Assembly (NCBI GenBank): GCA_024277595.1
Contig: JAJRUV010000117.1
Coordinates: 1-33,246 of the forward strand
Source of the DNA: Gammaproteobacteria bacterium
GTDB taxonomy: Bacteria > Pseudomonadota > Gammaproteobacteria > Thiohalospirales > Thiohalospiraceae
DNA length: 33,246 nucleotides
Reading direction: 5' to 3'
Shown: piece by piece, positions 1-17,654 of the stretch
How positions within the stretch are numbered: the first letter of the stretch is position 1
Layout of the letters: the number at the start of each line of letters is the position of its first letter
Made by a program: the position numbers and the translations under genes
The notes under the pieces: model-generated
Database searches by the model: none
Seen by the model: the letters and a program-made list of their open reading frames with translations, nothing else
What the model was told of the DNA's origin: nothing

Positions 1-162
1 GACACACAACTAAAAATCGCGCCATTCCGGCATGATTTTAGCCGGAATCCAGTAGCTTGAACTATAGATTCCGGCCAGGAGCATACTGGAATGACGGTAT
101 CCACAGTTTCTCTTTCTTTAATTTTGTCATGTTAGGCCTTAACCCGCGTTCAGGTTAGTTAC
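1..162. repeat. Partial copy of 198-bp inverted-end repeat, cut by the window edge
   Basis: This stretch is nearly identical to 7544-7696, apart from a ~10-base insertion near base 78 and a few substitutions. It contains the dyad ATTCCGGC (28-35) / GCCGGAAT and ends at 139-162 in the same terminal sequence as the complete copy (TTAACCCG, then CAGGTTAGTTAC). The left part of the element lies outside the window. No coding capacity is seen. It sits downstream of the DUF799 lipoprotein gene, whose stop is at 201, so it may lie in that operon's 3' region. Confidence 0.85.
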
Positions 163-7359: not shown

Positions 7360-7498
7360 TTCTCTTTCCTCGCGTTAATCTGACGCACAAACCTTACCTC
7401 TGTTGCAGCGATAAATTGTTGGCTGTGGGGGTGGCGCGGCGTTAACTTTCTAATAAGAGACCAGTCGAGAAGTGAGGTACGGAGAAGATAACAATATG
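7360..7498. other. Intergenic, no feature recognised
   Basis: This is the space between tRNA-His and the left end of the 198-bp repeat. No open frame, terminator or integrase-type sequence is seen. Confidence 0.5.
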
Positions 7499-7696
7499 GT
7501 AATTAACCTGAATTCGGGTTAAGCAATATTTCATCTAAAAGCTGACACACAACTAAAAATCGCGCCATTCCGGCATGATTTTAGCCGGAATCCAGTAGCT
7601 TGAACTATAGATTCCGGCCACGGAATGACGGTATCCACAGTTTCTCTTGCTTTAATTTTGTCATGTTAGGCCTTAACCCGAGCTCAGGTTAATTAC
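7499..7696. repeat. Complete 198-bp non-coding repeat with 24-bp inverted ends
   Basis: The left end GTAATTAACCTGAATTCGGG(TTAA) at 7499-7522 is the inverted complement of the right end at 7673-7696, with 2 mismatches in 24. The interior carries the dyad ATTCCGGC / GCCGGAAT and a second ATTCCGGC..GGAAT. The portion from 7544 to 7696 recurs at 1-162. There is no ORF, so this resembles a MITE or dispersed intergenic repeat. Its right end overlaps the left terminus of the palindromic element at 7689. Confidence 0.8.
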
Positions 7697-7811
7697 TCAG
7701 CTCACCCCTGAAATCCGCCATTTCTGCGTCAAAAAATGGTCATTTACACATGTAAACTCCCGTTTTTCGCCTTGAACTGACGAATTTTTTAGGGGCAATC
7801 TGAGCAGTTAC
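7689..7811 (+). repeat. Palindromic MITE-like element, copy B
   Basis: This 123-bp unit has inverted termini (about 7689-7717 against 7783-7811; the right end reads CTGAGCAGTTAC). Its interior is nearly identical to 17472-17592 (CCGCCATTTCTGCGT, AAAAAATGGTCATTTAC, CGTTTTTCGCCTTGAA). The right arm has two extra T. The 17 bp after the right end, CGGCAATATTGACTATT (7812-7828), also follow copy C. A third terminus-like motif, CTGAGTAGTTAC, follows at 7831-7842. It is non-coding. Confidence 0.85.
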
Positions 7812-7856
7812 CGGCAATATTGACTATTCGCTGAGTAGTTACACAATATGTTTGTA

Positions 7857-11978: not shown

Positions 11979-13607
11979 GTGGAAGATGGCTTGAAACAGC
12001 AAACCATATGGAAAGAACCAGCATGGATATGGATTGGTCTACTCGGTCTGTTCGGGTTGCTCGGTACTATTTTTTACGATGGCTTGTCTGCAATGGTACG
12101 GGCTTGGGGCAGGGAAGAGTATAGTCATGGTTATATGATTCCACTGGTGGTCGCTTTTCTTGTCTGGCAGAGAAAAGACCAACTGGAAAAAATTCAGTTC
12201 AGCGACTCCTGGGTCGGTGTTGTCATTGTTCTATTGGGGATTGGGCTCTATTTTTTGGGCGAGTTGAGCACTCTTTATATCATTATCCAGTACGCTTTTC
12301 TGGTAACTGTTTTCGGTATTGCGTTTTGTATGGTGGGCCGGGAAGGCATGCGGAAGATCTGGGTTCCATTGCTCTTCCTGGGTTTTATGATCCCGTTACC
12401 ATCGTTCCTCTTTAATAACCTCTCCTCTCTGCTCCAGCTGATTTCATCTCAGCTAGGGGTTTCAGTAATCCGTTTTTTCGGCGTCAGTGTCTATCTGGAA
12501 GGAAATGTCATTGATCTGGGGAACTATCAGTTGCAGGTAGTTGAAGCCTGTAATGGACTGCGTTATCTGTTCCCGTTAATGAGTCTGGCCTTTTTGTGTG
12601 CCTATTTTTTCAAGGGTGCTCTCTGGAAGCGGGCCGTTATCTTTATTTCCAGCATTCCGATTACGGTATTGATGAACAGCTTTCGCATTGGTGTCACCGG
12701 GGTTCTCGTTGATTACAAGGGCATTGCGATGGCGGAAGGGTTTCTTCATGACTTTGAAGGCTGGTTTATTTTCATGAGCTGCCTGGGAGTTCTTATTGCC
12801 GAGATGTGGGTATTGTCTAAAATAGGTCGTGATGGAAGTCGGCCGCTGCGCGAAGTGTTTGGCCTTGATTTTCCCAATCCTTCTCCTGAAGGTGCGGCCA
12901 TTCGTTATCGTTCTTTACCAAAATCACTTGTTTTTTCCGCGTTCTTGCTGGTGATAACAGCGGCATCCTCTTTTTTGGTGGTGCAACGTGAGGAAGTGAT
13001 TCCATCGCGGGCAGATTTTTCCGGGTTTCCATTACAGATTGGCAGCTGGCAGGGAACCGGTGAGCGTATGGAGCAAATCTATATTGATGCACTCAAGTTT
13101 GATGACTACATCATGGCGAATTTTGACAATGGTGCCGGGAAAGTCATTAATTTTTACGTTGCCTATTATGGGTCACAGAGAAAGGGTGAATCGGCTCATT
13201 CTCCCCGGTCGTGCCTGCCTGGAGATGGATGGCAAATGACCGGGTTGACGGTCAAGAGTATCGAAGGTGCGGGTACGAATGGTATTCCTCTGAGGGTAAA
13301 CCGCGTTGAAATACAGAAAGGCGATTATAAGCAGTTGGTCTACTACTGGTTTAATCAACGAGGCCGGGTGATTACCAATGAATATCTGGTGAAATGGTAT
13401 CTGTTCTGGGATGCATTGACCAAAAATCGTACAGATGGGGCGTTAGTTAGATTGACCACGCTGGTGATGCCGAATGAAGATATAAAAGAAGTGGAAGAGC
13501 GACTGGATGATTTCACAAAATCTGTTGCCGGGGTGCTTGATGATTACGTTCCTGGAGATACCATTGATACTAGTGTAACTGCGCCCCAGGTTGCGATCCG
13601 GAAATAA
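11979..13607 (+). CDS. xrtD: VPLPA-CTERM-specific exosortase XrtD with fused EpsI-like domain
   Basis: This 542-aa inner-membrane transpeptidase-like protease is predicted to cut and process C-terminally tagged exported proteins. The N-terminal ~285 residues are a multi-pass exosortase core with the three catalytic residues in family context: Cys191 in VVEACNGLRY, Arg236 in MNSFRIGVTG and His257 in FLHDFEGW. YSHGYMIPLVV (48-58) is another exosortase signature. After a further membrane segment (~316-335), residues ~345-525 form an EpsI-type periplasmic domain with the conserved HSPRSCLPGDGW (His407, Cys412). The fusion is characteristic of XrtD. The start is GTG with a strong G-rich ribosome site. 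The VPLPA-CTERM substrate encoded at 16657 supports the subtype. No polysaccharide genes are adjacent. Confidence 0.92.
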   Translation: MEDGLKQQTIWKEPAWIWIGLLGLFGLLGTIFYDGLSAMVRAWGREEYSHGYMIPLVVAFLVWQRKDQLEKIQFSDSWVGVVIVLLGIGLYFLGELSTLYIIIQYAFLVTVFGIAFCMVGREGMRKIWVPLLFLGFMIPLPSFLFNNLSSLLQLISSQLGVSVIRFFGVSVYLEGNVIDLGNYQLQVVEACNGLRYLFPLMSLAFLCAYFFKGALWKRAVIFISSIPITVLMNSFRIGVTGVLVDYKGIAMAEGFLHDFEGWFIFMSCLGVLIAEMWVLSKIGRDGSRPLREVFGLDFPNPSPEGAAIRYRSLPKSLVFSAFLLVITAASSFLVVQREEVIPSRADFSGFPLQIGSWQGTGERMEQIYIDALKFDDYIMANFDNGAGKVINFYVAYYGSQRKGESAHSPRSCLPGDGWQMTGLTVKSIEGAGTNGIPLRVNRVEIQKGDYKQLVYYWFNQRGRVITNEYLVKWYLFWDALTKNRTDGALVRLTTLVMPNEDIKEVEERLDDFTKSVAGVLDDYVPGDTIDTSVTAPQVAIRK

Positions 13608-13628: not shown

Positions 13629-13749
13629 CTAACTACTCAGATCGCTCCTGAAATTCGTCAGTTCAAGGCGAAAAATGTGAGTTTACGCAGGGAAATGATC
13701 ATTTTTTAACGCGGAAGTAGCGGATTTCAGGGGTGATTTGGGTAGTTAC
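13629..13749 (-). repeat. Palindromic MITE-like element, copy A (inverted)
   Basis: This 121-bp unit begins CTAACTACTCAGATCGCTCC and ends GGGTGATTTGGGTAGTTAC. It is the reverse complement of the element at 17472-17592 in more diverged form; it keeps GTTCAAGGCGAAAAA and ATGATCATTTTTTAACGC on the plus strand. It lies between the xrtD stop and prsT, in the 245-bp gap that must also hold any prsT promoter, and could affect transcript read-through. Confidence 0.8.
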
Positions 13750-13852
13750 GAATGAACAAGAGTGACTAAACAACGTTATTGCATGTAACTTGTTGTTATG
13801 TTGAATATTAAATCCGTGAATTGAAAACGGGTATATGCGTGCTGGAGACAAT

Positions 13853-16240
13853 ATGTTTTATCAAGGGGTGAAGTATCTTTGCTTGTCTTTTTTTATGGTG
13901 CTGTTTCTTGCTGCCTGCAGTTCAAGTGAACAGGCTGCCAAATACCTGGAGCGTGGCAAGGCTTATTATGAGGAAGGCAATTACGATAAAGCCAGGGTTG
14001 AGCTAAAAAACGTTCTCCAGATCGACCCAAAAAGTATAGATGGGCACTATTATCTTGCCCTTACACTGGAAAAAAAACAGGATTTGAAGAAGGCCTTTTC
14101 ACATTTTCTGGCGGTATTGGAGCTTGATCCGAAAAGCATCCCTGGTCGGCTCCAGGTTGGGAGATATTATCTGCTCGCCCAACAAAATGATAAGGCAATG
14201 GAGATGGTTCGTTCACTTTTGGCGGATGAACCAGGCAATCCGGAAGGTATTGCTCTGAAGGGTGCCGTGCTTGCCCGCCAAGGCGATGAGGCAGGTGCGC
14301 TGAAGCAAGCCGAAAAGGCTTATCAACTGGCTCCCGGCAACAGGGATGTTGTTCTGCTGTTGTCATCGCTCTATCAGAAAAACCAGGCGGATAAAGCGGC
14401 TGAGGTGCTGATGAAGGGGATGGAAAAAGACCCCGATGCAGAAATTCTTCGCCTGAAGCTGGCAGAAGTGTACTGGAATAGCAAGAATACCGAGGCGTTG
14501 GAGAAGTTGCTGCATGAAAGTATCGATAGTTATCCCCGGAACGCTCTGTATGTAACCCAGCTGGCGCAGCTCTACACCAGGTTGGAACAACTGGATAAAG
14601 CAGAAAAAGTTCTGCGTGATTCGGTTGCGGCTAACCCGGAGGATGAAGATCGGGAGCTGGTACTGGGCACTTTTTTACAGGAAAAACGGGGCGACAAAGC
14701 AGCTGAAACGGAACTTCTCAGATTTATTGATAAAAACCCGGAAGCTTACAAGGTTCGTTTTGGTCTGGCAAAGCTGTACAAAAAAAATAATAAACCGAAG
14801 CAGGCGGAACAACTGTACGTTGATATTATCAAAATAAGGGGAACGAATCTGGAAGGTTTGCAGGCAAAAAATGAACTGGCAATCCTTCGTTTGGACAATG
14901 GGCAGCATACTGACTCAAAACAACTGGTTACAGATGTGCTGGAAAACAACCCCAACGATCCACAGGCGCTGATGACGCGTGGGCGCATAGCCTTGCAGCA
15001 AGGGGATGCAAAGGGGGCCATCAATGATTTTCGTACTATCCTGCTGGGTGATCCTGCTTCTGACTCCATTCTGGTGCTGTTGGCCAGTGCGCATATGCGT
15101 AATAGTGAACCGGAACTGGCCCGGGAAAGTTTGCGCAAGGCCATTAAAGTCAATCCCCGTGCGTTCAAAGCCCGTTATGCATTGATCAGTTTTCTGACTT
15201 CGCAAAAAAAATATGATGATGCCCTGCGGCAGGCGGCAGAGCTTTTGAAATTGGCGCCCGATGATCGTCGGGGGCTGTTAACCGTGGCCGATATCCATGC
15301 CTTCAAGGGTAACTGGAAACAGGCCGAGCAGGCTGCCCAAAAAATCAAGCAGAATTATCCGGAAAATTCTGCAGGAAATATCAAGCTGGGACAGCTGTAT
15401 GCTGCACAAAAGAGATATGATGAGGCTATCAGCGAGCTTGAAATTGCCATTAAAAAATCTCCCGAACAAGCTGCTCCCGTTATTGCATTGACGAAGACCT
15501 ACGTGGCGAAAGGCAAGCCGGACAACGCGATTTCCCTGTTGCTACAGCAAATCAAAAAATCACCTGCCAATCAAGGCGGATACTATAATCTTCTGGGCGA
15601 ACTCTACCTGCTGCGACAGCAGGAACAGCAGGCAATCAATGCCTTTCAGAACTCAATTTCATCTTCATCGAAAAAAAGCTGGAATGCTGCGGTAAAAAAC
15701 CTGGCCAATATTTACTTGAAGCAGGGTAACAAGGATGAAGCAGTAAAGCTTGTCAGGGATGCTGTAGAAAAGGAGCCAGGCAACAGCGTATCCATGCTCT
15801 TTCTGGCCGGTATTTATGAGCGTACTGCTGACTATGATTATGCGATACAGCTCTACAGGGAAATGCTGAAAGTGAATCCAGGCAGTGATGTGGCTTCCAA
15901 CAATCTCGCTTCACTGTTGACTGACTTCAAAGGCGATGCTGCAAGCCTGCAACAGGCACTCAAACTGGCCGGACATTTCAAAAACTCTCCCAATCCGGCC
16001 TATATCGATACGCTTGGGTGGGCGTATTACAAATCCGGTGATACTGGCAAGGCCCTGGCGCTGCTGAAAAAAGCAGTACAAAAGGCTCCAAAGGTAACCA
16101 TTTTTAACTACCATCTTGGTGTGGTGTACTCTGCGGCTGGAGATAAAGCTCTTGCGCGCGAGCATCTGGGAGCAGTACTGGCGGCAGAAGATGGGTTGCA
16201 GTATGCAGATGAAGCCAAAAAAATACTTGATTCGCTATAA
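13853..16240 (+). CDS. prsT: PEP-CTERM system TPR-repeat lipoprotein PrsT
   Basis: This 795-aa lipoprotein has signal peptide and lipobox FLAAC (Cys22), then SSSEQAAKYLERGKAYYEEGNYDKARVELKNVLQIDP, which opens a long solenoid of TPR units (roughly 20) running to the C-terminus. This matches the very long TPR lipoprotein PrsT that accompanies PEP-CTERM/exosortase loci in Gram-negative bacteria. It is thought to act as an envelope scaffold for exopolysaccharide or substrate handling; the exact role is not proven. An in-frame ATG at 13835 exists, but the ATG at 13853 has GGAG 5 nt upstream and gives a proper signal peptide, so I prefer it. It is separated from xrtD by a MITE copy. Confidence 0.9.
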   Translation: MFYQGVKYLCLSFFMVLFLAACSSSEQAAKYLERGKAYYEEGNYDKARVELKNVLQIDPKSIDGHYYLALTLEKKQDLKKAFSHFLAVLELDPKSIPGRLQVGRYYLLAQQNDKAMEMVRSLLADEPGNPEGIALKGAVLARQGDEAGALKQAEKAYQLAPGNRDVVLLLSSLYQKNQADKAAEVLMKGMEKDPDAEILRLKLAEVYWNSKNTEALEKLLHESIDSYPRNALYVTQLAQLYTRLEQLDKAEKVLRDSVAANPEDEDRELVLGTFLQEKRGDKAAETELLRFIDKNPEAYKVRFGLAKLYKKNNKPKQAEQLYVDIIKIRGTNLEGLQAKNELAILRLDNGQHTDSKQLVTDVLENNPNDPQALMTRGRIALQQGDAKGAINDFRTILLGDPASDSILVLLASAHMRNSEPELARESLRKAIKVNPRAFKARYALISFLTSQKKYDDALRQAAELLKLAPDDRRGLLTVADIHAFKGNWKQAEQAAQKIKQNYPENSAGNIKLGQLYAAQKRYDEAISELEIAIKKSPEQAAPVIALTKTYVAKGKPDNAISLLLQQIKKSPANQGGYYNLLGELYLLRQQEQQAINAFQNSISSSSKKSWNAAVKNLANIYLKQGNKDEAVKLVRDAVEKEPGNSVSMLFLAGIYERTADYDYAIQLYREMLKVNPGSDVASNNLASLLTDFKGDAASLQQALKLAGHFKNSPNPAYIDTLGWAYYKSGDTGKALALLKKAVQKAPKVTIFNYHLGVVYSAAGDKALAREHLGAVLAAEDGLQYADEAKKILDSL

Positions 16241-17329: not shown

Positions 17330-17471
17330 GTTTGCTGTTGAGAAGAACCTGCCTGTTTTTTGTCTGAGCGCAGCAGCTCAAACGTATCGACTGCTTCTCA
17401 TATCAATCCAATCTGCCAGTTCTCAAAATAACATTTAGCCCCCCTTCTGCACACAAATACCAACCTTGGGC

Positions 17472-17592
17472 GTAACTGCTCAGCTCACCCCTAAAATCCG
17501 CCATTTCTGCGTTAAAAAATGGTCATTTACGCATGTAAACCCCCGTTTTTCGCCTTGAATTGACGAATTTTAGGGGTGAGCTGAGCAGTTAC
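17472..17592 (+). repeat. Palindromic MITE-like element, copy C (best preserved)
   Basis: This 121-bp unit has near-perfect ~29-bp inverted ends. GTAACTGCTCAGCTCACCCC (and on through CTAAAAT) starts at 17472, and its complement ends at 17592; 28 of the 29 terminal positions pair. The interior has a CCATTT/AAATGG dyad and TTTAC gcat GTAAA. There is no ORF. It lies between the convergent VPLPA-CTERM gene and the JAMM-peptidase operon, and is followed by CGGCAATATTGACTATT (17593-17609), also found after copy B. Confidence 0.9.
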
Positions 17593-17654
17593 CGGCAATA
17601 TTGACTATTACCCCTGGGCAAGATAATTGTTTCTGATGCGCGCATGCGGGAGAC

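What the first reader, a model, noticed from the sequence alone, without database searches (positions are those of the whole stretch)
17472..17592. Palindromic ~121-bp MITE family with long near-perfect inverted ends
Copy C has ~29-bp terminal inverted repeats with a single mismatch, no ORF, and a structured interior with further dyads. Three copies in 10 kb, two of them 121 bp and one 123 bp, imply recent activity of a transposase elsewhere. As RNA it would fold almost end to end, so copies between convergent or co-directional genes could terminate, stabilise or insulate transcripts.
Basis: seen in the sequence. Interest (0 to 1): 0.55.

Follow-up and report, generated by a model that had tools for sequence, protein, structure and literature searches.

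The report
IS66-type MITE with doubled right end
The repeat is a small parasitic DNA element with no genes of its own, about 152 bases long rather than 121, that has spread to about a hundred places in this bacterium's genome, most likely by borrowing the transposase of IS66-type insertion sequences.

Summary
The palindrome is real, and so is the MITE reading, but the boundaries are wrong. Across the genome the unit is about 152 bp: the 121-bp palindrome, which ends in a copy of the terminal sequence, plus a 31-bp right tail ending in a second copy (GTAACTAYTCAGC ... GCTGARTAGTTAC). Of 83 copies with an outer end, 67 have an 8-bp target duplication (at least 7 of 8) at the outer boundary and none at the 121-bp boundary. 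The same ends flank single-ORF IS66 transposase genes (ISBst12-like). Fragments of these lie at contig edges in this genome, and an intact relative has its own 8-bp duplication. All three window copies are damaged: C lost 12 bp of its outer end, A was split by a second MITE, and B has no recognisable outer end. A role as terminator or insulator is not supported. The unusual point is the doubled right end. Its two copies lie 31 bp apart in 72 of 84 copies, and in 17 of 22 units with a target duplication from other genera, although the spacer is only about 39% identical. I call it a new variant of a known kind. That both end copies are functional is inferred.

The parts
17464..17471 (.). left target duplication of copy C, CCTTGGGC
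   Evidence: sequence; best match 19 bases beyond the inner end, 7 of 8
17472..17611 (+). MITE copy C (140 bp left of a 152-bp unit; 12 bp of the outer right end deleted)
17472..17592 (+).
17580..17592 (+). inner right end (complement reads GTAACTGCTCAGC)
17593..17611 (+). remnant of the 31-bp tail, CGGCAATATTGACTATTAC
   Evidence: compare with intact tails
17612..17619 (.). right target duplication of copy C, CCCTGGGC (7 of 8)
7491..7498 (.). left target duplication of copy A, ACAATATG
7499..7505 (+). first 7 bases of MITE copy A (GTAATTA)
7506..7689 (.). second MITE family (usually 193 bp, here 184) inserted in the left end of copy A; its 6-bp duplication TAATTA is 7500-7505 / 7690-7695
7696..7842 (+). 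rest of MITE copy A with inner end and intact outer end
7843..7850 (.). right target duplication of copy A, ACAATATG (8 of 8)
13629..13749 (-). MITE copy B, 121-bp core only; outer end not recognisable
1..155 (.). part of another copy of the second MITE, cut by the contig start; followed by TAGTTAC, which looks like the stub of a GTAACTA end

Best explanation
A non-autonomous transposable element (MITE) of about 152 bp, moved in trans by single-ORF IS66-family (ISBst12-group-like) transposases that recognise the end GTAACTAYTCAGC and make 8-bp target duplications. Shown: ends, duplications, copy number, and IS66 transposase genes or fragments with the same ends in this genome and its relatives. 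The unit has one left end, a 121-bp palindromic core closing in an inner right end, an 18-bp spacer and an outer right end. The outer end is the one normally used. Rare units that stop at the inner end also carry duplications, so the core alone can apparently move. Inferred: that this transposase does the moving, that it binds both right ends, and that the usual 31-bp step (about three helical turns) places them on the same face of the DNA.
For: Duplication at least 7 of 8 in 67 of 83 copies at the outer end (48 perfect), 0 of 83 at the inner end (maximum 5), 8 of 6806 in mixed pairs. 111 right-arm matches in the own genome and 239 in G003, reversed control 0 (a copy split over two contig ends could count twice). 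IS66 transposase C-termini directly before the same end: own genome L166, L168 and L171, G003 L169 and all 13 fetched loci of G020, all at contig edges (17 of the 18 loci looked at); G020 has 27 such matches. Left end before tnpC in G003. Intact IS in L134 (1727 bp) and in L122 (1722 bp, perfect duplication AATTTTTT). The proteins match PF03050 and NF033517. ISDge4, an ISBst12-group IS caught transposing, has ends GTGACTACTCAGCA / GTAACTGCTCAGCA, one ORF and an 8-bp repeat (PMC12898284, passages).
Against: No complete parent IS is present in the own assembly, only fragments. Only 12-14 bp are shared between MITE and IS ends, so the MITE is not a simple internal deletion of any IS seen. L134 has no target duplication. 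The C/T variant at position 8 is found in both MITE and IS of the own genome, but G020, whose fetched IS ends are all C, has MITEs with a C left end and a T outer end. Movement itself was not observed. Genome G003 lacks the element between the matching flanking genes of copy C, but the intergenic DNA there is too diverged to show an empty site base by base.
Confidence: 0.88

Rival explanations
1. The 121-bp palindrome is itself the mobile unit, and the tail is unrelated flanking DNA.
For: Units ending at the inner end with duplications exist: L141 (8 of 8, core shortened to 109 bp) and L155 (7 of 8), L230 (8 of 8, 121 bp) and a 140-bp unit in L225 (8 of 8).
Against: 0 of 83 tailed copies have a duplication at the inner end; copies C and A in the window have theirs beyond the tail.
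Confidence: 0.05
2. The repeat is kept by selection as an RNA or DNA hairpin (terminator, mRNA stabiliser or insulator, like REP/BIME repeats), and its spread is secondary.
For: Very stable predicted hairpin on both strands; in 67 of 75 classified copies removing the element joins no predicted ORF, so most are extragenic; the left end and inner end co-vary at position 8 (T-A 54, C-G 21 of 81).
Against: Target duplications; no enrichment between convergent genes; minor wobble changes equal on both strands, 29 against 30; no terminator-like site in this MITE's own sequence in the window; no Rfam match there.
Confidence: 0.04
3. Another transposase family with similar ends moves the element and IS66 only shares the end sequence.
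For: The own assembly holds no intact IS66 copy; other repeat types with ends beginning GTAACTAYTCA occur (L069, L086).
Against: 8-bp duplications and GTAA ends are features of IS66 (recalled, and seen in ISDge4); transposase gene pieces sit directly inside these ends in own genome, G002, G003 and G020.
Confidence: 0.05

Closest known systems
ISBst12 group of the IS66 family (e.g. ISDge4 of Deinococcus geothermalis)
   Same: Ends nearly identical (GTGACTACTCAGCA / GTAACTGCTCAGCA against GTAACTACTCAGC / inner GTAACTGCTCAGC), 8-bp duplication, single transposase ORF in the matching IS
   Different: The finding carries no gene, is 152 bp, has a long palindromic core and two right ends
MITECca01 of Cardinium (IS982-derived MITE, 169 copies; PMC9769881, passages seen)
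   Same: High-copy MITE thought to depend on a resident IS, mostly intergenic
   Different: Other transposase family; [quoted passage not shown]
MITEPsy1 of Pseudomonas syringae (PMC3189936, passages seen)
   Same: 100-nt element with no coding sequence, transposition shown
   Different: 4-nt duplication, tentatively IS5-related, few copies
REP/BIME palindromes with RAYT transposases (recalled)
   Same: Extragenic palindromes in high copy
   Different: Here 8-bp target duplications and IS66-type ends

Membership tests
MITE | Short, no coding capacity, many copies | tested here: met
   152 bp; no ORF of 80 aa or more overlaps the three window copies; 111 right-arm matches in own genome
MITE | Terminal inverted repeats and target duplications | tested here: met
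   12-13 bp outer ends; 8-bp duplication in 67 of 83
MITE | Ends shared with an autonomous element in the same genome | tested here: met
   L166, L168, L171 of the own genome carry IS66 C-termini before the same end; no complete copy is assembled
MITE | Mobilisation by that transposase | not testable with these tools
   needs a transposition assay
IS66 family, ISBst12 group (mobilising element) | DDE transposase of IS66 type | tested here: met
   PF03050 and NF033517 over cut-off for L134, L122, L123
IS66 family, ISBst12 group (mobilising element) | Single ORF, no tnpA/tnpB | tested here: met
   L134: one long sense ORF between the ends; in L134 and L122 only 260 and 262 bp lie between the left end and tnpC, too short for tnpA plus tnpB (gene sizes recalled). 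L122 was listed only for ORFs of 150 aa or more.
IS66 family, ISBst12 group (mobilising element) | 8-bp target duplication | tested here: met
   L122 AATTTTTT on both sides; L134 has none
REP/BIME | No target duplication (recalled) | tested here: not met
   duplications present
Known RNA family | Rfam match above gathering score | tested here: not met
   only six tRNAs in the window

The most novel reading that the evidence does not exclude
The right terminus is a two-site transposase landing pad: two copies of the end, held 31 bp (three turns) apart, are both bound, so that the inner copy acts as an accessory site or as an alternative cleavage site that lets the element switch between a 121-bp and a 152-bp form. 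The inner copy is the best conserved block (95.7% pairwise identity over 10 representatives) while the spacer is 38.9% identical.
Probability: 0.35. Interest if true: 0.55.

Novelty: new variant of a known kind. Interest (0 to 1): 0.36.

Why it matters
IS66 transposition is said to remain insufficiently characterised (PMC12898284, passages). This family gives hundreds of natural insertions, many with exact ends and target duplications. Its doubled right end is a ready-made test of how many end copies the transposase needs and at what spacing. The repeats also lie at the ends of several contigs of these draft genomes and so help explain the breaks.

Tried and rejected
A canonical IS66 parent was sought by PF03050: hits in own genome, G002, G003 and G005 were fragments or broken copies, none in G001, G004, G006, G007, G020; one of them (L057) is a different IS66 with a tnpB-like stretch. 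Plasmid and phage collections: no match. Composite transposon of two MITEs (my first reading of copy A, still in a checkpoint note): rejected, because the second repeat has its own 6-bp duplication (7 of 12 perfect, 3 at 5 of 6, 2 worse) and is simply nested in TAACTA/TAGTTA-like sites of the first. RNA-level selection: minor wobbles are equal in both orientations (29 against 30, pairs 1-36), so not supported; five consensus pairs in the outer stem form a wobble only on the reverse strand, too few to matter. Strict pairing of MITE and IS variants by the C/T at position 8: contradicted by G020. Origin of the tail from an IS right end: best spacer matches 6-10 of 18, inconclusive. First counts included the reverse reading of each palindrome (106 of 212 rows); these were dropped. 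Sampling bias: L084-L113 were picked with a T-type pattern and L218-L265 by likeness to a 152-base query, so the T share in G003 and the share of tailed units are not unbiased. One search scored only 40 of 125 candidates and two per genome. In one search the G000 C-type representative dropped out, so ten rows were compared; the spacer comparison used 13 spacers. The paper search (names of the two MAGs) listed only unrelated papers by their titles.

Full report
What is there. Window 17472-17592 is a near-perfect 121-bp palindrome that would fold almost end to end on either strand. Related copies lie at 7690-7811 and, inverted, at 13629-13749. The window is one contig of a 2.5-Mb draft genome of 196 contigs. 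A search with the 121 bases listed 41 places in that genome, with only 40 of 125 candidates scored. The 25-base end pattern matched 96+94 times with up to three mismatches, and its reversed control 0 times. A right-arm pattern meant to count each copy once gave 111 in this genome, 239 in G003, 77 in G007, 20 in G001, 14 in G004, 4 in G002, and 0 at this stringency in G005, G006, G020 and four genomes of other genera in the family; control 0. Copies at contig ends might be counted twice.

True boundaries. Flanks of the first 30 copies showed that most repeats go on for 31 bp past the palindrome to a second end, followed in many by an 8-bp repeat of the left flank. Over 106 distinct forward copies from nine genomes, 84 have a recognisable outer end. 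Of 83 with enough flank, 67 have a duplication of at least 7 of 8 bases there (48 perfect), against 0 of 83 at the 121-bp boundary (maximum 5 of 8) and 8 of 6806 mixed pairs. The 16 that fail include copies with the second MITE nested in an end, and others with no visible reason. Of the 22 copies without an outer end, several are cut by contig ends and others have damaged tails; L141 (8 of 8) and L155 (7 of 8) have the duplication at the inner end. So the common unit is about 152 bp, and a form ending at the inner end exists.

The three window copies. C: 17472-17611 with a 12-bp deletion in the tail and a 7-of-8 duplication (CCTTGGGC / CCCTGGGC). A: 7499-7842 with a perfect duplication ACAATATG, its left end split at TAATTA by a second MITE (7506-7689). 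That second family has 27 matches in the genome, many partial, is 193 bp in 9 of 12 measured copies, and makes 6-bp TANNTA-like duplications (7 of 12 perfect, 3 at 5 of 6, 2 at 3-4). This explains why it lands in TAACTA/TAGTTA of the first family's ends, as in 5 of those 12 (L191, L193, L194, L200, L204). B: core only, diverged, no outer end seen.

Who moves it. IS66-type transposase genes lie directly inside the same ends. In G003 a left end GTAACTATTCAGCTGAG precedes a tnpC that is broken by another transposase-like gene (RAYT-like by recall). In G002 a tnpC C-terminus is followed by ...GGGCTGAATAGTTAC. In the own genome, contigs C13 and C161 break in a tnpC next to a T-type end and C41 next to a C-type end; G003 has one such place, and G020 has 27 matches to the C-terminus, all 13 fetched ones at contig edges and with a C-type end. 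Such breaks are expected where a repeated IS collapses in assembly (inference). An intact relative (476 aa, 1727 bp between ends, no duplication seen) is in a MAG named uncultured Ectothiorhodospiraceae bacterium (CAMYIO010000103.1), and another (483 aa, 1722 bp) has a perfect 8-bp duplication. The proteins are IS66 transposases by Pfam and NCBIfam, with one ORF, as in the ISBst12 group. ISDge4 of that group, caught moving in Deinococcus, has ends GTGACTACTCAGCA / GTAACTGCTCAGCA and an 8-bp repeat (PMC12898284, passages only). These resemble the MITE's outer and inner ends almost letter for letter.

Doubled right end. The distance from inner to outer end is 31 bp in 72 of 84 copies and 32 in 8; the other four have 21, 33, 35 and 36. 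To look further I examined 48 loci: 36 from other genera and 12 from two genomes of the window's genus that are diverged (G005, G006); 8 came and 40 were fetched by place, all chosen by likeness to the 152-base query. The scan fixed neither length nor spacing. 30 of 48 have a pair of ends with a duplication of at least 7 of 8; 18 have none. Of the 30, 23 have an inner end (up to 2 mismatches) exactly 31 bp from the outer, four have 21, 29, 30 or 32, and three have none (L225, L228, L230). Taking the other genera alone, 17 of 22 have exactly 31. The first element of L225, seen only, also has 31 (172 bp, 7 of 8). Comparing the first flank with the second 3, 5, 11, 17, 23 or 40 bases off gave 0 loci; 31 bases off gave 14, which is the inner end read against the outer duplication. 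Pairwise identity over ten representatives: left end 93.3%, inner end 95.7%, outer end 92.1%, spacer 38.9% (39.2% over 13 spacers, shuffled 26.1%). A spacer that has changed this much and kept its length suggests a constraint of about three helical turns. Common descent with few indels is the sober alternative and is not excluded: the spacers are still more alike than shuffled ones, and 32 bp is found in several copies.

Distribution. All 8 genomes of the genus match, 0 of 4 of other genera in the same family, and 4 of 44 others in the class at E up to 0.001, three of those weak. In a class-wide draw, 19 of 369 match at E up to 1e-10, in ten families. The pattern is patchy. Sampled cores in G003 are 97.5% identical at the median (30 cores), in the own genome 92.6% (39 cores). 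G003 has three sets of identical cores with at least two members inside contigs and with their own duplications, which speaks for recent movement there; the two identical pairs of the own genome all end at contig edges and may be an assembly effect.

Function. Nothing found supports a host role. Genes around 75 classified copies are convergent in 23, tandem in 40, divergent in 12; other gaps in the same loci give 13, 17 and 9 (ORFs called mechanically; 31 copies left out as too near an edge or without a flanking ORF). Removing the element would join an ORF in 8 of 75. No terminator-like site falls in this MITE's own sequence in the window; one (7563-7575) is in the second MITE nested in copy A, and one weak promoter-like match (7820-7847, 9 of 12) overlaps the outer end of copy A, promoter-like matches being no commoner than in shuffles. 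Minor stem changes make wobble pairs equally on either strand (29 against 30).

Known or new. In the literature searched (open-licence PMC) I found no IS66-derived MITE with these ends; of six papers that hold one of five end sequences, only the ISDge4 paper is about a bacterium, judged by titles. MITEs as such are well known. I therefore call this a new variant of a known kind, the variant being the doubled, evenly spaced right end.

Noticed in passing
window 1-162 and 7506-7689: A second MITE family (usually 193 bp, ends ACCTGAACTCGGGTTAAG, 6-bp TANNTA-like duplications, 27 full or partial matches in the genome) that in 5 of 12 measured copies sits inside a GTAACTA-type end of the first family.
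   Followed up: partly
L014 1501-1811; L069 1499-1833: Two elements in tandem with exactly 7 bp between them, the eighth base of the first element's duplication being the G of the next element; seen twice in different genomes, unexplained.
   Followed up: no
L069 1658-1833; L086 about 1542 (minus strand): Other repeats or ends beginning GTAACTACTCACCACGAAG and GTAACTATTCAGCCCCCAAGG, perhaps further MITEs of the same transposase.
   Followed up: no
L071 627-665, L072 1501-1538, L073 1501-1533: Palindromic stretches in other families that share only a core or part of an arm with this MITE and have different ends.
   Followed up: no
L083 1749-2699: A RAYT-like (by recall) gene interrupts the IS66 tnpC of G003.
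   Followed up: no
L134 2028-2101, L168 80-141: The right end of the T-type IS seems to hold a second TCAGC(C)ACATT motif 19 bp inside the first, reminiscent of the doubled MITE end.
   Followed up: no
window 11979-13607, 13835-16240: Exosortase EpsH gene followed by a large TPR protein gene, with MITE copy B between them.
   Followed up: no
G000 contigs C46, C112, C186, C145, C107, C85: Contigs begin or end inside the MITE tail, so the repeat itself seems to break the assembly.
   Followed up: no
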